DNA of 64,000 nt from Amycolatopsis solani (GTDB lineage: Bacteria; Actinomycetota; Actinomycetes; Mycobacteriales; Pseudonocardiaceae). The stretch is from assembly GCF_033441515.1 (NCBI RefSeq), contig NZ_JAWQJT010000002.1, forward strand, positions 620,001-684,000, read 5' to 3'. A program made the translations under genes and the position numbers. Below are positions 11,892-37,910 of the stretch, piece after piece. Positions within the stretch are counted from its first letter, which is position 1; each line of letters starts with the position of its first letter. Below the pieces are notes generated by a model, which was given only the letters and a program-made list of their open reading frames with translations, did no database searches and was not told the DNA's origin.

Positions 11892-12136
11892 AATGACCTG
11901 TCGGTGAATATCCGACCGGCGAACTCCGCAATTCGGGAGCGTCACGGGCGGTAGCCGAGTGAGTGTCCACAGTGGTAACCGGGCGCACTTCGATCATGGA
12001 TCGCGTGGCGAACTGCTGCTTCTGGTCCAGGATCGATAGGTCATTCGGCTGAACTCTGCGGATTGCGTATCCCCACGCGGCGTCTTGAGCCTTAACCTTG
12101 CGTGATTCTTCGCCATGAATCGCACTGGGGAGTGAG

Positions 12137-12205
12137 ATGAAGTCGACGTCACCGCCGTGGTTTCCGCGCGCCCATTCGCCGTCGGGAGCCGACGCCGAGC
12201 GATGA
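12137..12205 (+). CDS. Short leader ORF (22 codons) overlapping the first synthetase
   Basis: An ATG at 12137 follows the strong ribosome site GGGGAG (12127-12132) and opens a 22-codon frame beginning MKSTSPPWFPRAH. Its TGA (12203-12205) overlaps the ATG of the A-PCP-KS gene (12202-12204) as ATGA. That ATG has no good ribosome site of its own, so translation of the giant operon may depend on coupling to this leader. Pro and Ser are frequent but there is no run of one amino acid, so classical attenuation is not evident. The peptide itself matches nothing I know. Confidence 0.55.
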   Translation: MKSTSPPWFPRAHSPSGADAER

Positions 12206-15200
12206 CGCAAGACGGCTGCATCACACGTTTCGCGGAAATCGCGCGGCAGTCGCCCGACCGGATCGCGGTCGTCGAGCACGACTCGGCGGTGCGCTACGCG
12301 CGGCTGGCCGGGCTGGCCGGCGGGCACGCCGCCCGGCTGCTCGACGCCGGGGTCCGGCCGGGCGAGTTCGTCGGCCTGCTCACCGGGCACGGGACCGCCG
12401 CCATCGCCGCGATCCTCGGCACGCTGGCCGCGGGCTGCGCGTACGTCCCGCTCGACCCGACGTTCCCGCGGGACCGGCTCGCCCACCAGGTCGCGACGGC
12501 CCGCGTGTCGGCGGTGCTCGCCGATCCCGAGCACGTCGTCCTCGCGGAAGCGTTGTGCCGCAGCACTTCCGCGCGGGTCGTCCGGTCCGGGACGGACACC
12601 GCGCCGCTGCCGGTGCCCGGCCCGGACCCGGACGCGCCGGCCTACGTGCTGTTCACCTCCGGCTCGACCGGCCCGCCCAAGGCGGTCGCGCAAACCCACC
12701 GCAACCTGATGCACGTGGTGGACAACCAGATCGCGACGCTCGGCATCACCGCCGCCGACCGGCTCAGCCTGCTGGCATCCTTCGGCTTCGACGCGGCGAT
12801 CCCGGACCTCTACCCGGCGCTGCTGACCGGTGCCGCGGTGGTTCCGGTGGACGTCCGCGCCCACGGCGTGGCCCACGCCGCGCGCGAACTCGCGCGGCAC
12901 CGGGTCACCGTCTACCACTCGACGCCGACGGTCTACCGCTACCTGCTGGACGCGCTCGACGGCACCCTGCCGTCGGTGCGGACCGTCCTGCTGGGCGGTG
13001 AACAGGCCACCTACGCCGACGTCCGCCGCGGTCGCTTCGCGCCCGATTGCGTCTACGTCAACGGGTACGGCGCGACCGAGGTGACCTTCGCCGCGCAGTA
13101 CCGGCTGACCGCCGCCGACGTCCCCGATGGCGCCACCGGCCCGCTGCCGATCGGCACCGCGCTGCCCGGCTACGCGCTCACCGTGCTCGACGGCGGCGAG
13201 CTCGAAGTCAGCGGCGAATACCTGGTCGACGGCTACTTCGACCAGCCGGGCCCGGCGTTCGGCACCACCGGCGGCGGCGTCCGCCGCTACCGCACCGGCG
13301 ACCTCGGCGAGGTCCGGCCGGACGGGCAGGTCGTCTGCCTCGGCCGCCTCGACCGGCAGGTGAAGGTGCGCGGGTTCCGGGTCGAGCTGACCGAGGTCGA
13401 AGCCCGCCTCGGCGAACAGCCCGGCGTCGCCGAAGCCCGTGCGATCGTGCGGGACGGCGAGCTGCTCGCCTACGTCGTCCCGGCCGGGGAACCGGACGTG
13501 CCGGCGTGGCGGGCCGCGCTGGCCGAGACCCTGCCCGGGCACTCGGTGCCCTCCGCGATCGTCGCCGTCCCGGCGTTCCCGCTCACCGTCACCGGGAAGC
13601 TAGACGAGGAAGCGCTTCCGGACCCCCGCCCGCCCGCCCCCGTCGCGGCCCCGCCGATGACCGAGGCGCAGCGGCGGGTGCACGCGATCTGGTCCGCGGT
13701 GCTGGGGCACGACGGCTTCGGCACCGACGACGCTTTCTTCGACGTCGGCGGGCACTCCCTGCTGCTGGGCCGGGTCCAGCAGCGGCTGGCCGCGGAATCC
13801 GGTGTGGACGTTCCGCTGCTCGGCCTGCTGGCCCACCCGACGGTCGCGGCGCAGGCCGCCTACCTGGAACCGGCCACTGCGGACGGTCCCGGCGCCGAGC
13901 CTGCCGAACCCGGCGACGACGAGCCCGGCAGCGACCTGATCGCCGTCGTCGGGCTGGCCTGCCGGTTCCCCGGCGCGCCGGACGCCGACGCGTTCTGGTG
14001 GAACCTCTGCGCGGGCGTCGACGCGATCCACGACTACACCGACGACGAGCTGGCCGCGCTCGGCATCGGGCCCGGCCTGCGCGCCGACCCCGCGCACGTG
14101 CGGGCTGGCGGCCGCCTGGACGGGGTCGAGGACTTCGACGCCGGGTTCTTCGGGTTCACCGCGGAGGAAGCGGCGCGCACCGACCCGCAGCACCGGCTGT
14201 TCCTGGAGACGGCGTGGCGGGCGCTGGAGGACGCGGGCCGCGACCCGGCGCGCGAAACCGGTCCGGTCGGGGTGTTCACCTCCGCCGGGGTCAACCGGTA
14301 CTTCCTCTTCCACCTCTTCGGGAACCCGGCGGTCACCGGCGACGTCGACCCGGACGACTGGGAGGGCAGGCTGCTCGGGCGCCAGCTCACCGACCACCTG
14401 CCCGGGCAGGTCGCCTACCGGCTGGGCCTGACCGGGCCCGCGGTCGCCGTCCAAAGTGCCTGTTCCAGCTCGCTCGCCGCGGTCGGCCTGGCCGCGCAGA
14501 GCCTCGCCGAATACCGCTGCGACCTGGCGATCGCCGGCGGCGTGAGCGTGACGTGGCCGCGATACCGCGCCGGCGGTCTCGCGTCGGCGGACGGGCGCTG
14601 CCGCTCGTTCGACGTCGCGGCGGACGGGGCCGGGTTCGGGTCCGGCGCCGGGGTCGTGGTGCTGCGGCGGCTGTCGGACGCGCTCGCCGACCGCGACCAC
14701 ATTCACGCCGTGCTGCCCGGCTGGGCGATGACCAACGACGGCGCCGACCGCGCGGGCTACGCCGTGCCGAGCCCGGCGGGCCAGGCGGCCGCGGTCGCCG
14801 AGGCGCTGGCCGTGGCCGAGGTCGACCCGGCCGAGGTGCGGCTGATCGAAGCGCACGGCAGCGGCACCCCGCTGGGCGACGCGATCGAAGTCGCCGCGCT
14901 CAACCGGGTGTACCGCGACGCCCCGCCCGGCACGTGCGCGCTCGGCTCGGTCAAGACGAACATCGGGCACCTCGACGCGGCCGCCGGGGTGGCCGGCCTG
15001 ATCAAGACCGTCCTTGCGGTGCGCCACGGCGTGATCCCGCCGAACCTGCACTTCACCGCACCGCACCCGGAGGTCGACCTGGCGGGCGGCCCGTGCTTCG
15101 TGCCGGTCAAGGCGACCGACTGGCCCGAGTCGCCCCGCCGGGTGGCCGGGGTCAGCGCGTTCGGCCTCGGCGGGACCAACGTCCACGTCGTCGTCGAAGA

Positions 15201-15633
15201 AGCGCCGGCCCCGGGCCCGCGCGTGACGGCCGAGGGGCCGCACGTCCTGCCGGTGTCGGCGCGCGACCCGGAAGCCCTGCGCCAAGCCCTTTCCGCGCTG
15301 CGGGACCGGCTCGCCGCCGATCCACCGGACCTCGCCGACGCCGCTTACACCCTCGCCGTCGGACGCCGGGAGTTCGCTTGCCGCGCGGCCGTGGTCGCTT
15401 CGACCGCCGGCGAAGCCGTCGCTGCTCTCGCCACCCTCCTGGCCGAGGGTGGCGAGGTCGCCGGGCCGCCCGGTGCGGCACGGGAGCTGGCGCTGCGCTG
15501 GGCCGGTGGCGCCGACGTCGACTGGACCGCCCGCCACGACGGCGCGGAGCCGGGCCGGGTGCCGCTGCCCGGCTACTCGTTCCAGCGCACCAGGTTCTGG
15601 ATCGACCCGCCGGTTCCGGGACACCACCCGTGA
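12202..15633 (+). CDS. Hybrid NRPS-PKS: A-PCP-KS lacking an AT
   Basis: This 1143-residue protein begins the assembly line. Order: adenylation domain (about 10-500; core LFTSGSTGPPKAV, NGYGATE and YRTGDLGEV), PCP (about 500-565; phosphopantetheine Ser in FFDVGGHSLL), then ketosynthase (about 575-1000; Cys in QSACSSSLAA, His in EAHGSGTPLGD and NIGHLDAAAG, all intact). After the KS comes the usual KS-AT linker, and this passes straight into the post-AT linker (LPGYSFQRTRFW) with no acyltransferase and no ACP. Pocket residues read by eye are D-A-P-H-L-G-G-F-A-K, a code I cannot assign. It probably loads an amino acid and needs an AT in trans, perhaps from the protein at 19122. The start is translationally coupled to the leader ORF. 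Confidence 0.9.
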   Translation: MTQDGCITRFAEIARQSPDRIAVVEHDSAVRYARLAGLAGGHAARLLDAGVRPGEFVGLLTGHGTAAIAAILGTLAAGCAYVPLDPTFPRDRLAHQVATARVSAVLADPEHVVLAEALCRSTSARVVRSGTDTAPLPVPGPDPDAPAYVLFTSGSTGPPKAVAQTHRNLMHVVDNQIATLGITAADRLSLLASFGFDAAIPDLYPALLTGAAVVPVDVRAHGVAHAARELARHRVTVYHSTPTVYRYLLDALDGTLPSVRTVLLGGEQATYADVRRGRFAPDCVYVNGYGATEVTFAAQYRLTAADVPDGATGPLPIGTALPGYALTVLDGGELEVSGEYLVDGYFDQPGPAFGTTGGGVRRYRTGDLGEVRPDGQVVCLGRLDRQVKVRGFRVELTEVEARLGEQPGVAEARAIVRDGELLAYVVPAGEPDVPAWRAALAETLPGHSVPSAIVAVPAFPLTVTGKLDEEALPDPRPPAPVAAPPMTEAQRRVHAIWSAVLGHDGFGTDDAFFDVGGHSLLLGRVQQRLAAESGVDVPLLGLLAHPTVAAQAAYLEPATADGPGAEPAEPGDDEPGSDLIAVVGLACRFPGAPDADAFWWNLCAGVDAIHDYTDDELAALGIGPGLRADPAHVRAGGRLDGVEDFDAGFFGFTAEEAARTDPQHRLFLETAWRALEDAGRDPARETGPVGVFTSAGVNRYFLFHLFGNPAVTGDVDPDDWEGRLLGRQLTDHLPGQVAYRLGLTGPAVAVQSACSSSLAAVGLAAQSLAEYRCDLAIAGGVSVTWPRYRAGGLASADGRCRSFDVAADGAGFGSGAGVVVLRRLSDALADRDHIHAVLPGWAMTNDGADRAGYAVPSPAGQAAAVAEALAVAEVDPAEVRLIEAHGSGTPLGDAIEVAALNRVYRDAPPGTCALGSVKTNIGHLDAAAGVAGLIKTVLAVRHGVIPPNLHFTAPHPEVDLAGGPCFVPVKATDWPESPRRVAGVSAFGLGGTNVHVVVEEAPAPGPRVTAEGPHVLPVSARDPEALRQALSALRDRLAADPPDLADAAYTLAVGRREFACRAAVVASTAGEAVAALATLLAEGGEVAGPPGAARELALRWAGGADVDWTARHDGAEPGRVPLPGYSFQRTRFWIDPPVPGHHP

Positions 15634-15690
15634 GCCGCACGCACGTCCACCCGGCCGCCACCGCGGCCGGGCCGAACTGGGGAGTTCACC

Positions 15691-18600
15691 GTGACCGACA
15701 CGCTGCCCGTCGTGGGTACGCACGGCCCGCCACTGTCCTTTCCGGACACCACGGTCGCCGGGCTCGTCCTGGCGCAGGCGGACCGGACGCCGGACGCGCT
15801 CGCCGTCCGGCAGGGCGCCACCCGGCTCACCTACGCTGAGCTCGTCGCCGCGGCCTGGGGCGTCGCGGCCGCGTTGCGCGAGCGCGGGACGGGCCCGGAA
15901 ACCCGCGTCGGGGTGTGCGCGCACCGGACGCCCGCGCTCGTGAGCACCGTGCTCGGCGTCCTGCTGTCCGGCGCCTGCTACGTCCCGCTCGACCCGGGCG
16001 GGCCGCGGGCCCGGCTGACCGCGATCGCCGCCGACGCCGGGGTTTCGCTCGTCGTCGGGGACGCCGCGGTCGCCGAATTCGGCTCGGGTCACGGGATCGG
16101 CGTCCCGCCGCCCGCCGCGCCCGGCAGCTGCCCGGCCACCCCGGACACCACCGCGCACGTGCTCTACACGTCCGGCTCGACCGGGCGGCCCAAAGGCGTG
16201 CTCACCCGGCACCGCAACATCGTCGCGTTCGTCACCGGGTTCGCCGGGCGGCTCGGCGTCGGCCCGGGCACCCGGACGCTCGGCATCTCCTCGCTCGGGT
16301 TCGACGCGTTCACCATGGACGTCTTCGTGCCGCTGTCGGTCGGCGGCTCGGTGCAGCTGGCCGGGACGGCCGACCGCGCCGACCCGGAACGGCTGCGCCG
16401 GTTCATCGTCGAGCACGACGTCGACTGGGGGTTCATCACCCCGACCCTGCTGTCCCTGGTGGACCCCGCCGAGGTGCCCGGCTGGCGGACCGTGGCCTGC
16501 GGCGGCGAGCCGGTGCCCGCCGAGCTGGCCGCGCGCTGGCTGCCGGGACGCCGGTTCTTCCACGTCTACGGCCCGACCGAAACCACCGTCGTGGTGGTCA
16601 CCGACGAGGTGACCGGGGTGCCCGCCGACCCGCTGCCGTTGGGCACGCCGACGCCGGGGCACCGCGCGCACGTCGTCGACGACGAGCTGCGGCCCGTCGC
16701 GGCGGGCGAGGTCGGCGAGCTGGTCATCGGCGGTCCCGGCGTCGCCGCGGGCTACCTCGGCAGCCCGGAGCTGACCGAGCGGAAGTTCGTCGCCGACCCG
16801 TTCACGCCGGGGGAGCGGCTCTACCGCACCGGCGACCGGGCCCGGCTCCGCCCCGACGGCAGGCTGGAGTTCGCCGGCCGCGCCGACCGGCAGGTCAAGA
16901 TCCGTGGCCAGCGCATCGAACTCGGCGAAGTCGAAGCGGCGCTGGGCGCTCATCCGGACGTCGGCGCGGTCGCCGTCGAGGCCGTGCCGGGGCCGGGTGG
17001 CACCCGGCTGGTCGCGTTCCTCAGCCCGATGGCGGCACCGTCCGATGAGGACATCCACGCCTGCGCGGGTGAACGGCTCACCGAGGCCATGCGCCCGGCC
17101 GCGATCCGCCGCCTGGCCGAGCTGCCGGTCAACCCCGTCACCGGGAAGGTCGACCGGCCCGCCTTGCGTGCCCTCGCCGAAACCGGGCCGGCGGAGGACC
17201 TGGGTGGCTCACCGGTCGCCGAGGTGTGGCGGCGGGTGCTCGGGGCCGCCGCGGGGCCCGACTTCCTGCGGTCCGGCGGCGACTCGATCGCGGCGATGCG
17301 CCTGGTCGCGGCGCTGCGGCAGGACCTCGCCGCCGACGTGTCCGTCGAGGACGTCTTCGCGGCCCGGACGCTCGACGAGCTGACGCGGCGGGTGGCCGCG
17401 GCCGCGCCGCTCACCGGCCCCGGCCTGACCACCGGGCACGCACCCGCGCTGTCGCCACCGCAGCGGCGGCTGTGGTTCCTCGACCAGCTCGCCCCGGACG
17501 CGGCGCCGTACAACATCGCGATGGCGTTCCGGCTGACCGGACCGCTCGACGTCGGCGCGCTGCGAGCCGCCCTCCGCGCGGTGGCCGAGCGGCACGACGT
17601 GCTGCGCTGGCGGATCCGGCCGGTCGACGGCGTCCCGCAGGCCGAGTGCCGGCCACCGGGTGACGTCGAGCTGCCGGTGCTCCCGCTGGCCGAAGCCGCG
17701 GTCCGCGAGCGGCTGGCCGCCGACGCGGCGGCACCGCTGCGGCTGGACCGCGAACCGCCGTGGCGCGTGCGGCTCTACGAGCTGGGGCCCGAGGACCACG
17801 TCCTCGGCTTCACGCTGCACCACGCCGTGTTCGACGGCTGGTCGCAGGAGCTGCTCTGCGCCGACCTGAGCGCGGCCTACCGCGGCGAAGCCCTGCCGCC
17901 GTTGCCGGTGTCCTATGCGGACTACGCGGTGTGGCGCGCCGACCGCGACCGCCGCCGCGAAGCCGTCGACCTCGCCTGGTGGACCGGGCACCTCGCGGGC
18001 GCGCCGTCCACAGTGGACCTGCCGCGGGACCGGCCGCGCCCGGCGGTGCAGACCTACCGCGGCGCGACCCACCACCAGGCCTTCCCCGAGGGCGTCGCCG
18101 AGGCCGCCGGCGCCCTCGCCACTCGCACCGGAACCACCCGCGCGGGCGTGGTGCTGGCCGCGTTCGGGCAGCTGCTGCACCGGCTGACCGGCGGGGACGA
18201 CCACCTGGTCGCCACCGTCGTCGCGGACCGCCAGCTGGCCGAAACCCAGGACGTCGCCGGGTTCTTCGTGGACATCGTCCCGGTGCGGCTGCGCGCCGGG
18301 GACGCGGACTTCGCCACGCTCGTCCGCCGCGGCGGCGCCGAGCTGCTGGCCGCCACCGCGCACCCGGCGGCCCCGATCGACCGGCTCGTGGGCGCGCTCG
18401 GCGTGCCGCGCGACCCCTCGCGGGCGCCGCTGGTGCAGGTGATGGTCAACGTCCTCGGCTTCACCGAACCCCGGCTCGGCCTGCCCGGCGTCCGGGGGAC
18501 GTGGCTGCCGGTCGAGAAGCCCGGTTCGCCGTTCGACCTGACGGTGTACGTCCTCGAGCACGGCGTCGAGCTGCTGTACAACCCGGACCTGTTCGACGCG

Positions 18601-19125
18601 GCCCGGATGGCCTCGCTGGCCGAGGACTTCACGGCGCTGCTCGCGGCGCTGGTCGCCGAGCCGGACCGGCCGGCCGGGGCGTGCGCGCCCGAGCTGCCGC
18701 GCGCGTCGGTCCGCACCGCCGCACCGGAAGCGGCCGCGCAGGCCAGGCCGGCGGCGGCGCCCGACGTCGACCCGGCCGCGCTCGCGGCGACCGAGGCCCT
18801 GATCGCCGCGACCTGGCGGGAAGTGCTCGGCCTCGACGCCGTCCGGGTGACCGACAACTTCTTCGACGTCGGCGGGCATTCCCTCGCACTGGCCAAGGTG
18901 CACGCCGAGGTCACCGCCCGGCTCGGCCGCCGCATCCCGATGGTCGACCTGTTCACCCACCCCACCGTCCGCGCCCTCGCCACCCACCTCCACGCGGGGG
19001 CCGCGCCGAGCCCGGAACTCGCCAGGGCCGCCGAGCGGGTCGCCGCCCGCCGCGGGCGCACCCCGTCCAGAAGACCCCGCCGCAGTGCCGGCACGACCGG
19101 CCACGAACAGGAGCGACCGCAGTGA
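15691..19125 (+). CDS. NRPS: A-PCP-C-PCP
   Basis: This 1144-residue NRPS has adenylation (about 20-495; LYTSGSTGRPKGV, VYGPTETT, NPVTGKVDRP), a first PCP (Ser near 532 in FLRSGGDSIAA), a condensation domain (about 590-1000; intact HHAVFDG) and a second PCP (Ser near 1064 in FFDVGGHSLAL). There is no condensation domain before the A domain and no second A domain, so the protein is a staggered module joining two carrier-bound units. The GGDS form of the first PCP is usual before epimerase domains, yet none is present. By-eye code D-A-M-F-A-G-V-V-V-K is unassigned. The GTG start follows GGGGAG, 57 nt after the previous gene; its stop overlaps the next start as GTGA. Confidence 0.9.
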   Translation: MTDTLPVVGTHGPPLSFPDTTVAGLVLAQADRTPDALAVRQGATRLTYAELVAAAWGVAAALRERGTGPETRVGVCAHRTPALVSTVLGVLLSGACYVPLDPGGPRARLTAIAADAGVSLVVGDAAVAEFGSGHGIGVPPPAAPGSCPATPDTTAHVLYTSGSTGRPKGVLTRHRNIVAFVTGFAGRLGVGPGTRTLGISSLGFDAFTMDVFVPLSVGGSVQLAGTADRADPERLRRFIVEHDVDWGFITPTLLSLVDPAEVPGWRTVACGGEPVPAELAARWLPGRRFFHVYGPTETTVVVVTDEVTGVPADPLPLGTPTPGHRAHVVDDELRPVAAGEVGELVIGGPGVAAGYLGSPELTERKFVADPFTPGERLYRTGDRARLRPDGRLEFAGRADRQVKIRGQRIELGEVEAALGAHPDVGAVAVEAVPGPGGTRLVAFLSPMAAPSDEDIHACAGERLTEAMRPAAIRRLAELPVNPVTGKVDRPALRALAETGPAEDLGGSPVAEVWRRVLGAAAGPDFLRSGGDSIAAMRLVAALRQDLAADVSVEDVFAARTLDELTRRVAAAAPLTGPGLTTGHAPALSPPQRRLWFLDQLAPDAAPYNIAMAFRLTGPLDVGALRAALRAVAERHDVLRWRIRPVDGVPQAECRPPGDVELPVLPLAEAAVRERLAADAAAPLRLDREPPWRVRLYELGPEDHVLGFTLHHAVFDGWSQELLCADLSAAYRGEALPPLPVSYADYAVWRADRDRRREAVDLAWWTGHLAGAPSTVDLPRDRPRPAVQTYRGATHHQAFPEGVAEAAGALATRTGTTRAGVVLAAFGQLLHRLTGGDDHLVATVVADRQLAETQDVAGFFVDIVPVRLRAGDADFATLVRRGGAELLAATAHPAAPIDRLVGALGVPRDPSRAPLVQVMVNVLGFTEPRLGLPGVRGTWLPVEKPGSPFDLTVYVLEHGVELLYNPDLFDAARMASLAEDFTALLAALVAEPDRPAGACAPELPRASVRTAAPEAAAQARPAAAPDVDPAALAATEALIAATWREVLGLDAVRVTDNFFDVGGHSLALAKVHAEVTARLGRRIPMVDLFTHPTVRALATHLHAGAAPSPELARAAERVAARRGRTPSRRPRRSAGTTGHEQERPQ

Positions 19126-22100
19126 CGAACGACCTCGAACCGGGCGCCGAACCCATCGCCATCGTCGGGATGGCCGCCCGCGTGCCCGGCGCCGGTGACC
19201 TCCGGCAGTTCTGGCGCAACCTCGTCGACGGCGTCGAATCCATCAAGCCCGCCACCCGCGAGGAGCTGCTGGCCCGCGGCGCCGATCCGGCCACATTGGA
19301 CGATCCCAGCTGGGTCAACGCGACCACGGTGGTCGACGGCTTCGACGAGTTCGACGCCGACCTGTTCGGCATGACCAGCCGCGAAGCCGAGATCACCGAC
19401 CCGCAGCACCGGGTCTTCCTCGAAGCGTGCCACGCGGCGCTGACCGACGGCGGCTACGACCCGGCCCGCTACGGCGGCGCGATCGGGGTCTACGGCGGCA
19501 CCGGGCGGACCGGCTACCTGGTGGAAAACCTGCTGCGCAACGAACGGGTGATGGCTTCGCAGCACGGCGGCATCGGGATGTCCACCGGCAACCAGCCCAG
19601 CTACCTGACGACTTCGGTGTCCTACAAGCTGAACCTGCGCGGCCCGAGCCTTGCGATCCACACGGCGTGCTCGACGTCGCTGGTCGCGGTGCACCTGGCG
19701 TGCGAGGCCCTGCGCAACGGCGAGTGCGACCTGGCGCTGGCCGGCGGGGTGAACCTGGAGATGCCGCACGGCATCGGGTACATGGGCGTCGAGGGTTTCA
19801 CCTCGCCCGACGGGCACGTGCGGGCGTTCGACGCCGGCGCCAACGGCACGGTGTGGAGCAGCGGCGTCGGCGTGGTCCTGGTCAAGCGGCTCTCGCAGGC
19901 GCTGGAAGACGGCGACCACATCCGCGCGGTCGTGCTCGGCAACGCGATCAACAACGACGGCGCCACCAAGGTCGGCTTCTCCGCGCCGAGCGTCGCCGGG
20001 CAGACCGAGGCCATCGCGCAGGCGGTCGGCATGGCCGGGGTGAACCCGCGCACGATCGGGTACGTCGAGGCGCACGGCACCGGAACCGCGCTGGGCGACC
20101 CGATCGAGATCACCTCGCTGTCCACTGTGTACGGCCACGGCGTCCCGGACACCGGCTGGTGCGCGATCGGCTCGGTGAAGTCGAACATCGGTCACCTGTC
20201 CCAGGCGGCCGGCGTCGTGGCGCTGATCAAGACCGTGCTGGCGATGGAACACGGGCTGATCCCGCCGACCATCAACTACGAAGAAGCCAACCCGGGCATC
20301 GACTTCCCGCGCAGCCCGTTCCACCCGGCCACCACGGTGACCAAGTGGGAGGCCGCGGACACCCCGCGCCGGGCGGGCGTGAGCTCGTTCGGCGTCGGCG
20401 GCACCAACGCCCACGTGGTGCTGGAGGAGGCACCCGCGCCGCGGCGGCACCGCCGGCCGCACCCGGCCCACCTGCTGCGGGTGTCGGCGAAGACGCCGGA
20501 GACCCTGGCCACCGCGGTCGAGCGGCTCGCCGACCGGCTGGCCGGGGACGTCGACCTCGACCTCGCCGACGTCGCGCACACCCTCGCCACCGGGCGGACC
20601 GAATACCCGCACCGCGCGGTCGTCGTCGCACGCGACTCCGAAGACGCGGTCGACGGGCTGCGCGATCCCCGCCGGCTCACCACCGCGCAGGCCGGTGAGC
20701 TGAAGGTGGCGTTCCTGTTCTCCGGGCAGGGTTCGCAGTACGCCGGGATGGGGGCCGAGCTGTACCGCAGCGAGCCCGTCTTCGCGACGGCGTTCGACGA
20801 GTGCTGCGAGCTTTCCGGGCTCCCCGGCCTGAAGGACCTGGTCCTCGGCCGCGGCGGGGACGCCGAGCTGCGGGAAACGCGGTACACCCAGCCCGCGCTG
20901 TTCGCCGTCGAATATGCGCTGGCCCGGCTGTGGCGGAGCTGGGGCGTGCGGCCGGGCGCGATGATCGGGCACTCGGTCGGCGAGTACGTCGCCGCGACCG
21001 TGGCCGGGGTGTTCACCCTCGCCGACGCCGTCCGGCTGGTCGTCCGGCGCGGTGAGCTGATGCAGGGCATGCCCGCCGGCGCGATGCTCGCCGTCCAGCT
21101 CGACGAAGAGTCCGTCGCGAAGCGGCTGCCGGCCGGGCTTTCGATCGCCGGGGTCAACGGGCCGGGGACGTGCGTCGTCGCCGGGCCGTCCGACGCCGTC
21201 GCGGACTTCGCGTCGCTGCTGAAGTCGAGTGACGTGCAGTGCCGGGAACTGGTGACCTCGCACGCCTTCCACTCGCCGATGCTGGACCCGATCCTGGCCG
21301 AGTTCACCGACGCCGTCGCCGCGGTGCCGCGGTCGGCGCCGTCACTGCCGTTCCTCTCGAACCTGACCGGCGGCTGGATCACCGCCGAGCAGGCGACCGA
21401 TCCGGCGTACTGGGCCGCGCACCTGCGCCAGGCCGTCCGGTTCGGCGACTGCGTGCGGACGCTGTTCGACGGCGGCGAGCGGTGGGCGCTCGTCGAGTGC
21501 GGCCCGGGCCACCAGCTGGCCGGCCTCGCCCGCGGCCAGGTGCCGAAGGGCTTGCCGGCGCCGCAGCCGAGCCTGCCCGGCCGCACCGAGCGCGAGGGCG
21601 ACGTCGAAACGCTGTACGCCGCCGCCGGTCTGCTGTGGACGCACGGGGTGTCCGTCGAGCCCACGACGTCCGGGCACCGCGTCCCGCTGCCCGGCTACCC
21701 CTACGCGCGCAAGCGGTACTGGGTCGACCCCGATCCGAAGGGGACGCTCGCCGAGCCGGCGCCGCCGAGCGGGCCGCTGCCCCTCGACGAGTGGTTCGCG
21801 GTGCCGTCCTGGCGGCAGGCCGGTCCGGAACTGCGGCGGGAGCCCTTCGCGTCCTGCCTCGCGTTCGTCGACGGCGACGTCCTGCCGGGCCTGCTGACGG
21901 CCGCCGGGGTCGCGGTTACGGAGGTCCGGCCGGGCTCCGGGTTCGCCGCCACCCCGGCGGGGTTCACCGTGCGGCCCGGGGTGGGCGAGGACTACGACGA
22001 ACTCGTCGCCGCCCTCGGCGAGCGGCCCGGGCGGGTGGTCCACGCGTGGGCCCTCGACGGCACCGAAACCGGGATGGCCGCCCAGGAACGCGGGTTCTTC

Positions 22101-24380: not shown

Positions 24381-24390
24381 AGCAGGAGAC

Positions 24391-27371
24391 ATGACCGACA
24401 CGAAGGAATGGACGTTCCCGGCCTCGTTCGGGCAGGAGCGGATCTGGCTGTCGAACCAGCTCGACCCGGCGTCCCCGGTGTACAACCTCCCCTGCCAGGT
24501 GCGGCAGGACCTGCCGCTCACCGCGGGGCAGTGGCGGGCCGCGCTCGGCGTCGTCGTCGGACGGCACGAGGCCCTGCGCACGGCGTTCCGGATGGACGGC
24601 GGCGAGCTCGTCCAGGTGGTGCACGCCGACGTCCCGATCGACCCCGAGGTGCACGACCTGCGAGACCTCCCGGACCGGGAAGCGCGCGCGGCCGAGCTGG
24701 CCGAAGCGATCGCCCGCCGCGCGATCCCGTTGGACTCGGCGCCGCCGTGGCGGGCCCAGCTGTGCCGGCTCGGCGACGCCGACTGGCTGCTCACCTTCGT
24801 CGTGCACCACACGGTGTTCGACGCCGGGTCCGTGCTGGTGCTGGCGAACGAGCTGAACGAGGCCTGCAACGCGGTCGTCGAAGGACGGCTCCCGAAGCTG
24901 CCCGAGCTGGCCATCCAGTACCCGGACTACTCGGCGTGGCAGCGCGGCCAGTTGCCGGTCGTGCGCGCGCAGCTGGACTACTGGCGCGAGCGGCTCGCCG
25001 GGCTCCCGCCGGTGCACAGCCTGCCCACCGACCGGCCGCGGCCCGCGGAGTTCGGGTTCGACGGCGGCCAGGTCGACTTCACCCTCCCGGACGGCCTGCT
25101 CGACCGGGTCGGCGTGGTCGGCCGCGAGCTGTCGGCGTCGCCGTTCATGGTGCTGCTGGCCGGGTACACCGCGCTGCTGTCGCGGCTGTCCGGGGTGGAC
25201 GACGTCGTGGTCGGGGTGCCGGTCGCCGGCCGCGATCTGCCCGAGCTGGCACCGCTGATCGGCATGTTCGTCAACCAGCTCGCGATCCGCGTCGACTGTG
25301 GGGGCGACCCGGCGTTCGCCGAGCTCGTGGGCCGGGTCCGCACCGCGGTGCTCGACGCCATCGAGCACGGCCGCGTGCCGTTCCAGCTGGTCGCCGAGGA
25401 GGTGCGCCCGGAGCGTGACGCGGGCGTGCAGGCGCTGTACCAGATCGGCTTCAACTTCATCCCCGACTCGGGCATCGAGCCGGTCCGCTACGCCACGGCC
25501 AAGGACGACGTCGCCATCGACCTCACCGCGACCGGTGGCCGGCTGCTCTACCGCACCGACCTGTTCGACCGCGAGACCGCCGAGTCGATGGCCGAGCGGT
25601 TCCTGCGGCTCCTCGTGGCCGCGGTCGAAGACCCGGCCGTCGCGGTCGCCGACCTGCCGCTGCTGTCGGACGCCGAACGCGCCCGGATCGACGCGTGGAG
25701 CGGTTCGTCCACCGAGGACGCCCCGCTGGTCGTGGCGCGCTTCGAAGCGCAGGTCCGGTCCACACCGGACGCGGTCGCGGTGGACCTCGGCGGCTCGGTC
25801 CTGACGTACGCCGAGCTGAACGCGCGGGCCAACCGGGTCGCGCACCGCGTCGGTGCCGGTGGCGTGGTCGGGGTGTGCGCGCCGAACTCAGCGGACCTCG
25901 TCGTGGGTATCCTCGGCGCGCTCAAGAGCGGTGCGGCCTACGTGCCGCTCGACCCGGCCAACCCGGCCGCGCGGCAGGAGCTGATCCTGGCCGACGCCGG
26001 TGCGCGGGTGGTGCTCACCGCGGGCGATGTGACCCTGGCCGCCGAGACCCTCGCCCTCGACGATCCGGCAGTGTGGGCGGAGTCGGCCGAAGAGGACCCC
26101 GTGCGGCCGGAGCCGGACGCGATCGCCTACGTCATCTACACCTCGGGCTCGACCGGGCGCCCCAAGGGCGTGCAGGTCGGCCACCGGGCACTCGCCACCT
26201 ACCTCGGCTGGGCGCGCGAGGCGTACCCGAGCCTGGCCGGGCGCGCGCTGCTGCACACGTCGGCGTCGTTCGACCTGACCGTCACGACGCTGCTCGGCCC
26301 GCTCACCGCCGGCGGGTCCATTGTGGACTCGGGGCGGCCGGACTTCGTCAAGGCCACCCCGACGCACCTCGCCGTGCTGCCGGAGGAGTCTTATCCGACC
26401 GGGGACCTGGTGCTCGGCGGCGAGGCGCTGATGGGCGAAGCCGTGCGGCCGTTCTCGGGGATTTCCGTCACCAACGAGTATGGGCCGACCGAGGTGACCG
26501 TCGGCTGCGTGGCCCACCGGCTCGACGGTCCGGTCGACGGACCGGTGCCGATCGGCCGCCCGATCCCCGGTACCCGCGCTTACGTCCTCGACGCGCGCTT
26601 GCGGCCGGTGCCGCCGGGCGTCGCCGGGCAGCTCCACCTGGCCGGCACGCAGCTCGCGCACGGCTACCTCGGGCTGCCCGAGCTGACCGCCGAGCGGTTC
26701 CCGGACGGCCCGTACGGGCGGATGTACGCGACCGGCGACCTCGCCCGGTGGCGCCGGGACGGCACCCTGGAGTACCTCGGCCGGACCGACGACCAGGTCA
26801 AGCTGCGCGGCTTCCGGATCGAGCCGGGTGAAGTGGAAGCCGCGCTGCGGGAGCTGCCGGAGATCCGGGACGCGGCGGTGGCGGTCCGCGAGGGGACCCT
26901 CGTCGGGTACGTCGTCGGCACCGCGGACGGCGCGGCCGACGCGCTGCGGGCGGTACTGCCGGAGTACCTGGTGCCGACCGTGTTCGTCACGCTGGAAGCA
27001 CTGCCGGTGGCGGCGAGCGGCAAGCTCGACCGGGCCGCGCTGCCCGATCCGCACCTCGGTGCCGCGACGGAGTACGTGGCCCCGAGCACCGCGGCCGAGG
27101 AGCTGGTCGCCGAGGTGCTGGGCGAGCTACTGGGCATCGAGAAGCTCGGCGTGCACGACGACTTCTTCGCCCACGGCGGCAATTCGCTGCTCGCGATCCG
27201 CGCGATGGCCCGGATCCGCAAGCAGGTCGGCGTCGAGCTGCCGGTCCGCGGCCTGTTCTCCTTCACCACGGTGGCCGGGCTCGCCGCCGAGGTCGAGCGG
27301 CGCCTGGAAGCGGACCTCGAGCAGCTCAGCGACGAAGAGGTCCGGGCCCAGCTGGCCGAAGGCGGGCAGGC

Positions 27372-27375
<4 letters not shown>
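24391..27375 (+). CDS. NRPS: C-A-PCP, adenylation code read as Asn
   Basis: This 994-residue single module has condensation (about 5-430; HHTVFDA in place of HHxxxDG), adenylation (about 455-895; YTSGSTGRPKGV, NEYGPTEVT) and PCP (about 920-980; FFAHGGNSLLA). Pocket residues aligned by eye to GrsA are D-L-T-K-V-G-E-V-G-K. This is one conservative change from the well-known Asn code DLTKLGEVGK, so L-Asn is the likely substrate. The final Gly to Ala change in the C motif is tolerated in active domains. The ATG follows AGGAG, 10 nt after the PKS stop; the stop overlaps the next GTG. Asn fits the AsnO/SyrP-like oxygenase encoded downstream. Confidence 0.92.
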
Positions 27376-32761
<5,386 letters not shown>

Positions 32762-32765
<4 letters not shown>

Positions 32766-34015
32766 CCGACGTCGTGCTGGTCAGGGAAGCCTGCGGCCAC
32801 TGGGTCGGCGAGGTCGCCGCGGCGGTGCACGCGGCCGGGCACCGCGCGGTGCTGCTCGCGCCGCCGGTCGACACGGCGTCGCTCGCCGGGGTGGTGGACG
32901 AGGTGATCGCGGTCGACGACGTCCACGACGCCGAGGCGGTCGCCGCTCGGATCCGCTCGGCGGTCGGGACGCCCGCCGCCGTGCTGACCGGCTCGGACGG
33001 GATCGTCGCGAGCACCGCCCGCGCCGCCGAACTGCTCGGCGTCGCGCGGTGCCCGGCGTCGGTGTTCGCCTTGTGCGCCGACAAGTTCGCGGTCCGGGAA
33101 GCACTGGCCGCCGCCGGGCTGCCGGGACCCGCGGCGGCGCTGATCTCGTCGGCCGCCTCGGCGGCGGAGGTGGCCGAGCGGGTCGGGCTGCCGGCGATCG
33201 TCAAGCCGGTCAACGGCGCCGGGAGCAACCTCGTGCGCACGGTGTCCACTGTGGACGAGCTGGCGGCGGCGTACTCGCTGCTGGCTGCGCGGCTGCCCGC
33301 GTCCGCGGACCCGCGCTACCACCGCCGGCTGGGGACGATCGACCCGGCGTCGACGTTCCTCGTCGAGAGTCTGTTGCGAGGCCCGGAGTACGCGGTGGAC
33401 GTGCTGATCCGCGACGGCGTCGCCGAGCCGGTCGAGATCCTCGACAAGCCGCTGATCGACGAGCGCAAGTTCGAGCTGGCGCTGTCCTGCCCGCCGGCCG
33501 GGTTGCCGCCCGAGCGGGCGGAGCTGGTCAGGTCGGCGGCGTCGGCCGCGGTGCTCGCGCTGGGCCTGGACAACACGGTCGCGCACGTCGAGGTGATCGA
33601 CGACGAGCGGCGCGGCCCGACGATCGTCGAGGTCAACGCGGGCCGCCCGGCGGGCTCGATCATGCCGTTGCTGGCCAAGCTGCGCACCGGAATCGACGTC
33701 TTCGCCGAGCTGACGGCCCTCGCCCTCGGCGCGCCGCCACCCGCGCGCGAGCCGGCGAAGCTGCCGATCCCGCTGGGCATGCTGATCCTCTACGCGGCCG
33801 GATCCGGCACGCTGACCGGCATCGGCGGCCTCGACGAGGTCGCGGCCCTGCCGGAAGTGGTCGACGTCGTCACGACGGTCTCGCCGGGCCAGGTGCTCAC
33901 CGACGAGCAGGAGACGTACGCGGTCAACCTGGTCGTCGCGGGCTTCGCCGACCACGACGACCTCACGGCCCTGCACGCCGAAGCCAGCAAGCTGATCCGC
34001 CTGGAGGTCGCGTGA
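32762..34015 (+). CDS. ATP-grasp carboxylate-amine ligase (first paralogue)
   Basis: This 417-residue protein has an N-terminal Rossmann-like preATP-grasp part (1-100) and an ATP-grasp domain (about 110-310). Visible are the Lys in PAIVKPVNGAGS, the hinge region FLVESLLRGPEYAVDV and the metal site THIVEVNAGRPAG-like PTIVEVNAGRP. A BL00235/BacD-type C-terminal part follows. Such enzymes join a carboxylate to an amine via an acylphosphate, as in bacilysin or dapdiamide biosynthesis. It starts with GTG inside GTGA overlaps on both sides, so it belongs to the NRPS operon. It may add or modify an amino acid on the product, or serve self-protection. Confidence 0.9.
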
Positions 34016-35274
34016 AGACCGCGTTCATCGTGCGGGAAACGCGCGGACAGTGGATCGCGGACTTCGCGGCCGCCGTCCGCGCGGCCGGGTGGCGGGCCGA
34101 GCTGGTCACCGAGCCCGTGGACGACGTCGAGCGGGCCGAGCTGGACACCCTGGTCGACGGGTTCGTCGTCGTCGACGACGTCCGGGACGCTCCCGCGGTG
34201 GCCGAGGCGCTCCGCGACCGGGCGCCCGCCGCGGTGCTGACCGCGGCCGAAGGGATCATCGCGAGCACCGCGCGGATCGCCGGGCTGCTCGGTGTCGCCC
34301 GCTGCGGGGCGGACGTGTTCACGCTGGCGCACAACAAGTTCGCCGTCCGCGAGGCGCTCGCCGCGGCCGGGCTGCCGGGGCCGCGGGCGGCGTTGTTCGC
34401 CGACCCGGTCGATGCGCCGCGGATCGCTCAGGAGGTCGGCTTCCCGGCGATCGTCAAGCCGGTCAACGGCGCCGCGAGCGCGCTCGTCCGCACGGTGTCC
34501 ACTGTGGACGAGCTGGTCGCGGCGCACCACCTGCTGGCCACCCGGCTGCCGGAGAACCCGGACGCGCGCTACCACCGCCCGCTGCCGGGAGGGCTCGACC
34601 CGCTGCGGGTGTTCCTCGTCGAGAGCCTGCTCGACGGCCCGGAGTACGCGGTGGACGTGCTCGTCCGCGACGGCGTGGCCGAACCGGTCACCGTGGTCGG
34701 CAAACCGCTGGTCGACGAGCGGAAGTTCGAGCTCGGCATGGTCTGCCCGCCGTTCGGGCTGTCCGGGGAGCGCGCGTCGGCCATCCGCGAGGCCGCGTCG
34801 GCCGCCGTGCTGGCCCTCGGCCTGGACCACACGGTCGCCCACGTCGAGGTGATCGACGACGCGCGGCTCGGCCCGGTGATCGTCGAGGTCAACGCGGGCC
34901 GCCCGGCCGGGGGAGCGCAACCGGCCCTGCTCAAGCTCGCCACCGGCGTCGACGTCATCGCCGAAGCCGTTTCCCTCGCCCTCGGTACGCCGCCGCCCGC
35001 GCGGGGCACCGGGCTGCCCGTGCCGGTCGGGTACCTCATCGTCTACGCGGAGGGCCGCGGACGGCTGGTGCGCGTCGAAGGCACCGAGGAGGTCGCGGAC
35101 CTGCCGGAGGTCCTCGACGTCGTCACCATCGTTTCCCCCGGCCAGGTGCTCAGCGACGACCAGGAGATCTACGCCGTCAACGTCCTCGTCGCCGGGTTCA
35201 CCGACCTCGACGACCTGGCCGCGCTGCACGCCGAGGCCGCCAAACTCGTGCGATTCGAACTGGAGGAGTCATGA
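34012..35274 (+). CDS. ATP-grasp carboxylate-amine ligase (second paralogue)
   Basis: This 420-residue protein closely parallels its upstream neighbour along the whole length (shared KFAVREALAAAGLPGP, KPVNGA, TVSTVDEL, EVNAGRPAG), so the pair arose by tandem duplication. ATP-grasp Lys and the acidic metal residues are kept, so both copies look active. Retention of two copies suggests two successive ligations or a heterodimer rather than redundancy. Start GTG (GTGA overlap with copy 1), stop overlapping the TauD ATG. No substrate can be deduced. Confidence 0.9.
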   Translation: MKTAFIVRETRGQWIADFAAAVRAAGWRAELVTEPVDDVERAELDTLVDGFVVVDDVRDAPAVAEALRDRAPAAVLTAAEGIIASTARIAGLLGVARCGADVFTLAHNKFAVREALAAAGLPGPRAALFADPVDAPRIAQEVGFPAIVKPVNGAASALVRTVSTVDELVAAHHLLATRLPENPDARYHRPLPGGLDPLRVFLVESLLDGPEYAVDVLVRDGVAEPVTVVGKPLVDERKFELGMVCPPFGLSGERASAIREAASAAVLALGLDHTVAHVEVIDDARLGPVIVEVNAGRPAGGAQPALLKLATGVDVIAEAVSLALGTPPPARGTGLPVPVGYLIVYAEGRGRLVRVEGTEEVADLPEVLDVVTIVSPGQVLSDDQEIYAVNVLVAGFTDLDDLAALHAEAAKLVRFELEES

Positions 35275-36209
35275 CCGCCGATCTCGCGGCGCCGCTGGGG
35301 CAGCTGCAGGGCAACGAGCACACCAGGATCGCCGTCTTCCCGGCCGCGGACTTCGCGGCGGTGGAGGCGCGGCTGCCGGCGTTGCGGAACCACCTGCGCG
35401 ACCACGGCGCGATCCTGCTGCGCGGCCTGCCCGCCGACCTCGACCTGTTCAACCGGGTCACCGAGGCGATCGGCGGGGCGCTGCTGACCTACACCGAGCG
35501 GTCGACGCCGCGCTCGAACGTGGCGGGCAACATCTACACCTCGACGGAGTACCCGCCCGCCGAGTCGATCCCGATGCACAACGAGAACTCCTACTCGGCG
35601 AGCTGGCCCGCGCGCCTGTTCTTCCTGTGCGACACCGCGGCGGAAACCGGCGGGGCCACGCCGATCGCGGACAGCCGGGCGCTGTACCGGCTGCTGCCGG
35701 CGGACCTCCGGGAGCGCTTCGCCGGCGGCGTCACCTACGCGCGCGCGTTCCGCGAAGGGCTCGGGCTGACCTGGCAGGAGGCGTTCCAGACCGAGGACCG
35801 CGCGGTCGTCGAGGACTACTGCGCGCGCAACGGCCAGACGTTCGAATGGACGGAGGAGGGCCTGCGCACCCGGCACGTCCGGCCGTCGTTCGTCACCGAG
35901 CCGCACACCGGGGACACCGTGTGGTTCAACCAGGCCAACCTGTTCCACGTCTCGAGCCTCGGCGAGGAGGTCAGCGAGGCGCTGCTGGAGCTGTACCCGG
36001 AGGCGGACCTGCCCCGCAACGCCTACTTCGCCGACGGCAGCCCCATCCCGGTCGAAGACCTGGTGAAGGTCCGCGAGGTCTACGACGAGGTCAGCTACGC
36101 GTTCCCGTGGCAGGCCGGGGACATCATGGTGATCAACAACATGCTGATGGCCCACGGCCGCGAGCCGTTCACCGGCAAGCGGCGCATCCTGGTGGCGATG
36201 ACGGGATGA
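35271..36209 (+). CDS. TauD-family Fe(II)/2-oxoglutarate oxygenase, SyrP/AsnO-like
   Basis: This 312-residue dioxygenase has the iron-binding facial triad H103-x-E105 (MHNENSY) and distal His295 (LMAHGRE), with the 2-oxoglutarate Arg in KRRILVAM. The HxE variant instead of HxD is the form found in amino-acid beta-hydroxylases such as AsnO and VioC. SyrP is a TauD relative acting on carrier-bound Asp. Together with an Asn-reading adenylation domain in the same operon, beta-hydroxylation of Asn (free or tethered) is the natural hypothesis. ATGA overlaps on both sides bind it to the operon. Confidence 0.9.
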   Translation: MTADLAAPLGQLQGNEHTRIAVFPAADFAAVEARLPALRNHLRDHGAILLRGLPADLDLFNRVTEAIGGALLTYTERSTPRSNVAGNIYTSTEYPPAESIPMHNENSYSASWPARLFFLCDTAAETGGATPIADSRALYRLLPADLRERFAGGVTYARAFREGLGLTWQEAFQTEDRAVVEDYCARNGQTFEWTEEGLRTRHVRPSFVTEPHTGDTVWFNQANLFHVSSLGEEVSEALLELYPEADLPRNAYFADGSPIPVEDLVKVREVYDEVSYAFPWQAGDIMVINNMLMAHGREPFTGKRRILVAMTG

Positions 36210-36826
36210 CCGCACCGGTGGTGGTGCTGCTCGCGCACCCGCGGCCCGGCAGCTTCAACCACGCGCTCGCCGGCCGGGTCGTCGTGGCGCTGGAGCGGGC
36301 CGGGGTGCCGGTGCGGTTCCACGACCTGTACGCCGAAGGCTTCGATCCGGTGCTGACCGCGGAAGAGGCCTACACCAGCGGAACCCGGGCGGAGGAGTTC
36401 CTCGCCGCCGAGCCGGATCCGCTGGTGCGGCGCCACCGCGAGGACCTGCGCGGGGCGGGCGGGCTCGTCGCGATCCACCCGAACTGGTGGGGCAAGCCGC
36501 CCGCCATCCTCAGCGGCTGGCTCGACCGGATCCTCGTCCCGGGCGTCGCCTACCGCCTCTCCTCCGCGGGTGGCGCGCCCGAGTCGCTGCTTTCCCTGCG
36601 GCGGCTGCTGGTGGTGAACACCTCCGACACCACCGAGGAGCGCGAGCGGACGCTGTTCGGCGACCCGCTCGACGCGATCTGGCGGCGCTGCCTGGCGCCG
36701 TACCTCGGCGAGCCGGAGGTCCGCCGACTGGTGCTGCGGGTGGTGGCCGACGCGGACTCGGCTCGCCGCACGGCGTGGCTCGACGACGTCGAGGCGGAGG
36801 CGGCGCGGTTCTTCGGCGCCCGCTGA
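36206..36826 (+). CDS. NAD(P)H-quinone-oxidoreductase-like flavodoxin-fold protein
   Basis: This 206-residue protein has a flavodoxin-like fold: phosphate-binding HPRPGSFNHALAG at the start and the HPNWWGKPPAILSGWLDR signature of NQO1/MdaB/KefF-type FMN- or FAD-dependent quinone reductases. It uses NAD(P)H for two-electron reductions. As the last gene of the operon (ATG overlapping the TauD stop, hairpin terminator 12 nt downstream) it could reduce a quinone, nitroso, imine or enone step in the product, or protect against redox stress. Role in the pathway is inferred from position only. Confidence 0.85.
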   Translation: MTAPVVVLLAHPRPGSFNHALAGRVVVALERAGVPVRFHDLYAEGFDPVLTAEEAYTSGTRAEEFLAAEPDPLVRRHREDLRGAGGLVAIHPNWWGKPPAILSGWLDRILVPGVAYRLSSAGGAPESLLSLRRLLVVNTSDTTEERERTLFGDPLDAIWRRCLAPYLGEPEVRRLVLRVVADADSARRTAWLDDVEAEAARFFGAR

Positions 36827-36906: not shown

Positions 36907-37803
36907 TCAGCGGTAGGTGTCGAGGGTCAGCTTCGCCGCCTGGGCGATCAGCCGGTCGTCGTGCTCGGCGTTCTCGGTCTTGCGGTCGGACAGCACGGCC
37001 AGCACGATCGGCGCGCGGCCCGGCGGCCAGATCACCGCGATGTCGTTGCGCGTGGCGTATTCGCCGGTGCCGGTCTTGTCGGCGACGGTCCAGCCGGCGG
37101 GGGTGCCCGCGCGGATCACCGCGGCGCCGGTGAGGTTGGCGCGCATCGTGTCCGTGTAGAACGTCCGCTGCGCGGACGGTAGCGCCGTGCCGACGGCGAA
37201 CGCGCGCAGGTCGGCCGCCATCGCGCGCGGGGTGCTCGTGTCGCGGACGTCGCCCGGGGCCAGGTCGTTGAGGCCCGGCTCGATCCGGTCGACGTGCGTG
37301 GTCGTGTCGCCGATCCCGCGCAGCGCGGCGGCCAGCCCGGCCGGGCCGCCGAGCTCGCGGAACAGCAGGTTGGCGGCGGTGTTGTCGCTGTAGCGCAACG
37401 CCGCGTCGATCGCGTCACGCAGGGACAGCCCGGTCCCGGCGTGCTTTTCGCCGATCGGTGAGTTCTCCTGCACGTCGGCCCGGGTGTAGGGCAGCACCTT
37501 CGCCAGCCCGGCCATACTCGTCCGCTGGAGGACGGCCGCGGCGGAGAACGCCTTGTGCGTCGACGCGTAGCCGAAGCGCTCGTCGGCCCGGTGGGTGACC
37601 TCGCGGCCGGAACCGGTGTCGATCGCGTACACGCCGAGGCGGGCGTCGAAATCGCGTTCGAGCGGCGCGAAGTCCGGTTGCGGCGCGACCGAGGACGTCG
37701 ACGGCGGGGCCGCGGCCGGCGCCGGGGTTTCGGCGGCGCACGCGGTGAGCGGGACGAGGGCCAGCGCGGCGAGCGCGGCCCACCGGACGTGGGGGAACGG
37801 CAC
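36907..37803 (-). CDS. blaL: Class A beta-lactamase lipoprotein (BlaL-like)
   Basis: This 298-residue class A serine beta-lactamase shows all catalytic motifs: S-x-x-K in ASTHKAF, SDN in RYSDNTAA, the omega-loop Glu in RIEPGLNDL and KTG in DKTGTGEY. A lipobox (PLTAC) after a short hydrophobic signal indicates a membrane-anchored lipoprotein, and an Ala/Pro-rich linker follows. It hydrolyses penicillins outside the cell. It is divergent from a LysR gene that is followed by a BlaB-like gene, the arrangement described for Streptomyces cacaoi blaL-blaA-blaB, so it is probably beta-lactam inducible. Confidence 0.93.
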   Translation of the reverse strand: MPFPHVRWAALAALALVPLTACAAETPAPAAAPPSTSSVAPQPDFAPLERDFDARLGVYAIDTGSGREVTHRADERFGYASTHKAFSAAAVLQRTSMAGLAKVLPYTRADVQENSPIGEKHAGTGLSLRDAIDAALRYSDNTAANLLFRELGGPAGLAAALRGIGDTTTHVDRIEPGLNDLAPGDVRDTSTPRAMAADLRAFAVGTALPSAQRTFYTDTMRANLTGAAVIRAGTPAGWTVADKTGTGEYATRNDIAVIWPPGRAPIVLAVLSDRKTENAEHDDRLIAQAAKLTLDTYR

Positions 37804-37884
37804 GGTGCTTCCTTCCGGTCTTGATCGACATCCGCAGTCTCACCGCGTTCGCTCATGCTGTCCAAGACGGAAACCGGCGGTTCG

Positions 37885-37899
37885 ATGCCACAATCGCAT
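37885..37899. promoter_or_regulatory. LysR box ATGC-N7-GCAT in the bla divergent region
   Basis: ATGCCACAATCGCAT has 4-bp arms and satisfies the LysR T-N11-A rule exactly (T37886, A37898). It lies 11 nt before the LysR start and 82 nt before the beta-lactamase start, a position suited to autoregulation and activation of the divergent gene. Confidence 0.6.
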
Positions 37900-37910
37900 A
37901 GAGTGAGGTC

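What the first reader, a model, noticed from the sequence alone, without database searches (positions are those of the whole stretch)
12137..36826. Apparently undescribed NRPS-PKS operon ending in (hydroxy)Asn-Ser with two ATP-grasp ligases
The sequence shows one continuous plus-strand operon: leader ORF, A-PCP-KS, A-PCP-C-PCP, KS-AT-KR-DH-ACP, C-A(Asn)-PCP, C-A(Ser)-PCP-TE-MFS, ATP-grasp, ATP-grasp, TauD, quinone-reductase-like. Most junctions overlap by 4 nt. Known family rules predict two amino-acid starters or extenders, at least one dehydrated malonate unit, then Asn and Ser. I cannot match this order to any cluster I know. The cluster lacks its own regulator, MbtH protein and phosphopantetheinyl transferase.
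Basis: partly seen in the sequence, partly recalled or inferred. Interest (0 to 1): 0.82.

Follow-up and report, generated by a model that had tools for sequence, protein, structure and literature searches.

The report
Peptide-polyketide operon predicted to make beta-lactone
A gene cluster shared by many Amycolatopsis soil bacteria encodes an assembly line that probably makes a small, exported peptide ending in a reactive four-membered ring, and it appears to use two stand-alone amino-acid ligases where related clusters use a tRNA-type enzyme.

Summary
A plus-strand operon (leader ORF 12137-12205, genes 12202-36826) encodes A-PCP-KS, A-PCP-C-PCP, KS-AT-KR-DH-ACP, C-A(Asn)-PCP, C-A(Ser)-PCP-TE-MFS, two ATP-grasp ligases and a TauD oxygenase. 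Genes D-H are present in 20 of 20 named Amycolatopsis/Labedaea loci found by an ATP-grasp search. Ten paper searches gave no characterised product. With a terminal Ser this predicts a peptidyl serine beta-lactone. (2) Related Micromonospora-type clusters carry two LanB/PEARL-like proteins where the window's clade has two ATP-grasp ligases, suggesting a non-homologous swap of amide-forming machinery. (3) TauD tracks an Asn-type A domain (20 of 22 contexts, 0 of 8 others), supporting 3-hydroxy-Asn. Open: A1 and A2 substrates, what the ligases act on, and whether the ring forms; distant TE-MFS relatives often do not end in Ser. New variant of a known kind, with a testable product prediction.

The parts
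12092..12111 (+). conserved upstream box TTAACCTTGCGTGATTCTTC (promoter or operator candidate)
   Evidence: alignment of 14 sequences, diverged in G030 and G111; function not tested
12137..12205 (+). leader ORF, 22 codons, stop overlaps start of gene A (ATGA)
   Evidence: sequence; equivalent ORF in 13 of 14 placed sequences
12202..15633 (+). gene A: A1-PCP-KS-linker, no AT; code DAPHLGGFAK (substrate unknown)
   Evidence: Pfam; KS catalytic residues; code
15691..19125 (+). gene B: A2-PCP-C-PCP; code DAMFAGVVVK (hydrophobic, variable among relatives)
   Evidence: Pfam; C motif LHHAVFDG, not the ureido motif
19122..24380 (+). gene C: KS-AT(malonyl-type HAFH)-KR-DH-ACP
   Evidence: Pfam; motifs
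24391..27375 (+). gene D: C-A(Asn)-PCP
   Evidence: Pfam; code DLTKVGEVGK
27372..32765 (+). gene E: C-A(Ser)-PCP-TE-MFS, one open frame
   Evidence: Pfam; fusion conserved in relatives
30576..31346 (+). TE domain, Cys nucleophile (GHCGVG), ObiF1-like
   Evidence: sequence; triad; fold
31434..32762 (+). MFS transporter domain fused to the TE
   Evidence: Pfam
32762..34015 (+). gene F: ATP-grasp ligase with LAL_C2 domain
   Evidence: Pfam; nearest solved structure L-amino acid ligase BL00235
34012..35274 (+). gene G: second ATP-grasp ligase, paralogue of F
   Evidence: Pfam; 67% identical to F
35271..36209 (+). gene H: TauD-type Fe(II)/2-oxoglutarate oxygenase, HxE motif; probable Asn 3-hydroxylase
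   Evidence: Pfam; PDB relatives; co-occurrence with Asn-type code
36218..36826 (+). gene I: flavodoxin_2/NAD(P)H oxidoreductase, peripheral
   Evidence: Pfam; 8 of 20 named relatives

Best explanation
The operon makes a short exported peptide-polyketide with an electrophilic end. Shown by sequence: module order, Asn and Ser codes, malonyl-type AT with intact KR and DH, Cys-type TE fused to an MFS exporter, two ATP-grasp ligases, TauD. Inferred: aa1 (A1) is extended with malonate by the AT-less KS, using the second carrier of gene B and the AT of gene C in trans; the A2-PCP-C part adds a hydrophobic amino acid; gene C adds a C2 unit that is reduced and dehydrated to an alkene; Asn (3-hydroxylated by H) and Ser follow. 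The TE Cys takes the chain and the Ser hydroxyl closes on it, releasing a serine beta-lactone that the fused MFS exports. F and G each form one amide bond off the assembly line, as PEARL-like proteins are thought to do in sister clusters.
Against: Of 72 TE homologues the terminal code is Ser in 41, Thr in 1, something else in 27, not called in 3, so the Cys-TE-MFS type is not tied to a beta-hydroxy residue. A Cys TE can do other hard chemistry: BulbE-TE closes an indolylamide macrocycle (PMC11536411, passages). ObiF1 has Gly at position I; the window has Ala (64 of 73 Ala, 9 Gly). The 0+2 and 1+1 contexts were found by searching with F, so ligase counts are biased, and the swap rests on about two events (tree). 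G1449 has only one ligase. No ureido-type C domain, so the free carboxylate the ligases would need is not identified. G111 and G372 have an Asn-type code without TauD in the stretch read.
Confidence: 0.5

Rival explanations
1. The TE hydrolyses the chain or closes a larger ring (through the hydroxy-Asn hydroxyl, the N-terminal amine or a ligase-added residue); the Cys only reflects a difficult cyclisation.
For: BulbE-TE precedent. Terminal codes vary in distant TE-MFS relatives: 27 of 72 neither Ser nor Thr.
Against: Window TE is closest to ObiF1 in sequence and fold, SulM second in fold; Ser invariant in the near clade.
Confidence: 0.3
2. F and G do not replace PEARL-like enzymes; they make a dipeptide precursor or put a protecting amino acid on the N-terminus, and the LanB proteins of sister clusters do something else.
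For: LAL-type ATP-grasp enzymes usually join free amino acids (recalled); no acceptor carboxylate was identified; no UreaC motif.
Against: Ligase number is two in 20 of 21 contexts with the AT-less KS; of 9 TE-MFS contexts without it, 8 have none. No PF14028 elimination domain lies among the core genes of 14 sister clusters.
Confidence: 0.4
3. The product is a beta-lactam rather than a beta-lactone, with Ser converted to a diamino acid; the neighbouring beta-lactamases serve self-protection.
For: SulM is the second fold match; class A beta-lactamase genes lie downstream.
Against: A code reads Ser; SulM's Gln-Cys-Asn motif is absent (window His-Cys-Gly); no sulfotransferase among the Pfam matches of the operon proteins; beta-lactamase adjacent in only 9 of 20 named relatives.
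Confidence: 0.05
4. An ordinary NRPS-PKS cluster whose linear product has no special chemistry.
For: Standard modules; no experiment exists.
Against: Cys TE, TE-MFS fusion and AT-less KS are conserved.
Confidence: 0.15

Closest known systems
Obafluorin synthetase ObiF/ObiF1 (beta-lactone-forming TE)
   Same: Cys-His-Asp triad with Asp at position II; top sequence and fold match of the window TE; terminal beta-hydroxy residue predicted
   Different: No MFS fusion mentioned in the passages seen; ObiF1 carries an MLP domain; position I is Gly, here Ala
Sulfazecin SulM TE (beta-lactam-forming)
   Same: Cys nucleophile, relocated Asp, second fold match
   Different: Gln-Cys-Asn motif, diaminopropionate terminal residue and sulfotransferase not found here
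Threopeptin (sna) cluster of Stackebrandtia nassauensis (PMC11212132)
   Same: NRPS-PKS hybrid with a stand-alone amide-forming enzyme beside the assembly line
   Different: SnaE is LanB/PEARL-like, here ATP-grasp; sna has a ureido-forming C domain and a stand-alone thioesterase; different modules
L-amino acid ligase BL00235 / BacD (ATP-grasp)
   Same: Sequence family; LAL_C2 domain in F and G
   Different: Embedded as a pair in an NRPS-PKS operon; substrates unknown
Uncharacterised Micromonospora-type clusters (G348, G340, G501 and others)
   Same: Same A-B-C-D-E core, TauD, TE-MFS; own leader ORF in 5 of 8 contexts examined
   Different: Two LanB-like proteins, a type II TE and MbtH; no ATP-grasp pair

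Membership tests
Four-membered-ring-forming TE (ObiF1/SulM type) | Cys nucleophile | tested here: met
   73 of 73 TE-MFS rows including window, 70 distinct
Four-membered-ring-forming TE (ObiF1/SulM type) | Catalytic Asp at position II and catalytic His | tested here: met
   73 of 73; criterion from PMC11298585, section 10 and passages. Type II TEs share the Asp position
Four-membered-ring-forming TE (ObiF1/SulM type) | Nearest solved structures are ObiF1/SulM | tested here: met
   fold: ObiF1 first, SulM second; sequence: ObiF1 first, SulM behind BorB and SrfD-type TEs
Four-membered-ring-forming TE (ObiF1/SulM type) | Terminal residue with a beta nucleophile | tested here: met
   Ser code by signature; activity not assayed
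Four-membered-ring-forming TE (ObiF1/SulM type) | Makes a beta-lactone or beta-lactam | not testable with these tools
   needs biochemistry
[quoted passage not shown]
   window His-Cys-Gly
PEARL-containing NRP cluster (threopeptin type) | PF04738 protein in the cluster | tested here: not met
   no match in genome G000; 17 of 21 genomes in the same search have one
PEARL-containing NRP cluster (threopeptin type) | Ureido C-domain motif EHHxxHDG | tested here: not met
   LHHAVFDG, VHHTVFDA, THHIVGDG
L-amino acid ligase (ATP-grasp) | ATP-grasp_4 plus LAL_C2 domains | tested here: met
L-amino acid ligase (ATP-grasp) | Forms an alpha-peptide bond between amino acids | not testable with these tools
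   needs assay
TauD-type Asn 3-hydroxylase | HxE...H iron site | tested here: met
   HNE and distal His conserved
TauD-type Asn 3-hydroxylase | Hydroxylates Asn | not testable with these tools
   association with an Asn-type code only

The most novel reading that the evidence does not exclude
The cluster makes an NRPS-derived peptidyl serine beta-lactone, released by a Cys TE straight into its own fused MFS exporter, and it has replaced a pair of tRNA-dependent PEARL-like ligases by a pair of ATP-grasp ligases: a non-homologous swap of the amide-forming machinery within one biosynthetic family.
Probability: 0.3. Interest if true: 0.75.

Novelty: new variant of a known kind. Interest (0 to 1): 0.6.

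Why it matters
Beta-lactones are rare, reactive warheads, and few TEs are known to build them. This predicts a large uncharacterised family with such a TE fused to an exporter. The LanB/ATP-grasp exchange would help show what LanB-like proteins do in the roughly two thousand NRPS/PKS clusters that hold them (number from PMC11212132) and offers a tRNA-independent system in which to test it.

Tried and rejected
Considered and dropped: siderophore product (no siderophore gene seen among the proteins scanned); ureido chain reversal (motif absent); beta-lactamase as part of the cluster (9 of 20 named relatives); gene I as core (8 of 20). The A1 code DAPHLGGFAK has His at position 278, as I recall for some Glu codes, but no substrate was assigned. 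A phylum-wide TE-MFS search of 396 genomes at a strict cut-off found only the own genome. Searches for DUF6002 and for LanB with Micromonospora and PKS terms found no paper; other paper searches were unhelpful. In one search the phrase 'serine beta-lactone' has zero occurrences in each of the 9 papers listed; that search asked for any 4 of 6 terms, so it does not show absence from print. The statement that no product is in print rests on the ten searches only. The Foldseek 'pdb' search did not run; VIA-align 2 did.

Weak points. Codes were read by motif and alignment, and code-to-substrate names are recalled. Contexts were chosen by me from hits to F or to TE-MFS, not at random; those found through F (8 with 0+2, Catenulispora, G031) carry an ATP-grasp by construction. 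Two contexts read (G372, G205) were left out; one search put them back: neither has LanB, ATP-grasp or TauD, G372 has an Asn-type code, and the counts here include them. G031's code (DFTKLGHVGK) is counted as Asn-type; if it is not, the TauD counts are 19 of 21 and 1 of 9. In G031 the ATP-grasp lies about 13 kb from the nearest cluster gene and 16-38 kb from the others, beside another NRPS-PKS, and TE-MFS is not the same there; a PF14028 match lies about 19 kb beyond that ATP-grasp. LanB matches outside the cluster exist in four ATP-grasp genomes (G085, G183, G295, G030). Four contexts (G348, G340, G501a, G100) begin inside gene A. TE alignments shorter than 150 residues and frames under 400 aa were dropped; 3 of 73 TE rows are copies. 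The Fisher value ignores relatedness, uses the older counts and is not used.
Full report
The window lies in an Amycolatopsis-like genome (G000 contig 2, 620001-684000, 10.28 Mb); the nearest homologues of gene F are in Amycolatopsis. The reported operon is present as described: A-PCP-KS, A-PCP-C-PCP, KS-AT-KR-DH-ACP, C-A-PCP, C-A-PCP-TE-MFS, two ATP-grasp ligases, TauD and a flavodoxin-like oxidoreductase. Six of nine junctions overlap by 4 nt. Gene A carries a KS with intact Cys and His residues and what I recall as a post-AT linker, but no AT.

Leader. The 22-codon ORF at 12137-12205 overlaps the start of gene A by ATGA. Of 15 sequences given to the script 14 could be placed, and 13 of those (window included) have an ATG ORF of 21-23 codons with the same overlap, with gaps in multiples of three; a box TTAACCTTGCGTGATTCTTC upstream is conserved but diverged in G030 and G111. 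G111 has only GTG-start frames without the overlap, and G283 gave no match. In 5 of 8 Micromonospora-type and other contexts a different short ORF sits in that place. It probably couples translation; a peptide function is not tested.

Distribution. In 297 genomes of the family, 13 of 26 same-genus genomes (own included) and 2 of other genera carry the ATP-grasp pair at high identity. In 20 named Amycolatopsis/Labedaea loci genes D to H are present in all; gene I in 8, the downstream beta-lactamase in 9. Genes A to G were seen in the 7 relatives read upstream, H in 6 of them, not G111. The core is therefore A to H.

Specificity. Signature residues read DAPHLGGFAK (A1), DAMFAGVVVK (A2), DLTKVGEVGK (Asn) and DVWHVSLIDK (Ser). 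A1, Asn and Ser change little among the near relatives; A2 varies but stays mostly hydrophobic; Catenulispora has another code in place of Asn. The AT has the malonyl-type HAFH motif, and the KR and DH residues are intact.

Limits of that reading. Of 72 TE homologues, 41 end in a Ser code, 1 in Thr, 27 in other codes and 3 were not called. All 37 called homologues with TE identity of 57% or more end in Ser; in two of them (G309, G501b) the upstream modules differ. Below that the terminal residue varies, and BulbE-TE shows that a Cys TE may close other difficult rings (PMC11536411 passages). Type II TEs share the Asp position.

The ligases. F and G have ATP-grasp and LAL_C2 domains; the nearest solved structure to F is the L-amino acid ligase BL00235. 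Micromonospora-type clusters with the same core carry two proteins with the PF04738 LanB domain between A and B, one fused to a type II TE. In 14 genomes with LanB-bearing clusters no PF14028 elimination domain lies among the core genes (the nearest, in G031, is about 19 kb beyond its ATP-grasp). By the criterion of PMC11212132 (passages) that fits PEARL-like enzymes. Of 21 contexts with the AT-less KS, LanB plus ATP-grasp totals two in 20: 8 with 0+2, 10 with 2+0, 2 with 1+1; G1449 has one. Of 9 TE-MFS contexts without that KS, 8 have none and G1301 has one. G111 and G295, in the ATP-grasp clade, keep the type II TE at the A/B junction. A KS-AT tree makes the ATP-grasp clade one group (100/100) among lineages that mostly bear LanB. 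The own genome has no PF04738 match; 17 of 21 genomes in that search do, four of the ATP-grasp genomes outside the cluster. The ATP-grasp contexts were found by searching with F, so the count is biased and about two events underlie it.

What the ligases act on is open. In threopeptin biosynthesis SnaE extends a free carboxylate created by a ureido-forming C domain (PMC10769383 parts 1-2 of 4). None of the window's C domains has that motif.

TauD. H has an HxE iron motif; its PDB relatives are TauD or clavaminate-synthase-like. It occurs in 20 of 22 contexts with an Asn-type code and 0 of 8 without, supporting 3-hydroxylation of Asn. The exceptions are G111 and the more distant G372. Counting G031's code as not Asn would give 19 of 21 and 1 of 9.

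Overall: a real, conserved, uncharacterised operon; not a new kind of machine, but a variant with a specific product prediction and an unusual exchange of ligases.

Noticed in passing
window 41605-45741: Selenocysteine island: SelD (-), tRNA-SeC 42652-42746, SelA, SelB.
   Followed up: partly
window 36907-39679: Class A beta-lactamase, LysR regulator and a second beta-lactamase-family protein next to the operon; the first is adjacent in 9 of 20 named relatives.
   Followed up: partly
window 12092-12111: Box TTAACCTTGCGTGATTCTTC conserved upstream of the leader ORF.
   Followed up: partly
G030 contig 5, 480-484 kb: Tandem LanB-domain matches in the Labedaea genome that also has the ATP-grasp cluster; a second LanB-type cluster may coexist.
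   Followed up: no
L083:2037-3425 and L104:6344-7699: DUF6002 proteins in two related clusters; no paper in the library holds the term.
   Followed up: no
window 48849-54320: Alpha-L-rhamnosidase and arabinofuranosidase genes side by side, divergent.
   Followed up: no
G501, G309, G043, G1384 contexts: TE-MFS fused to quite different NRPS modules, some ending in Ser, some in Cys-like codes.
   Followed up: partly
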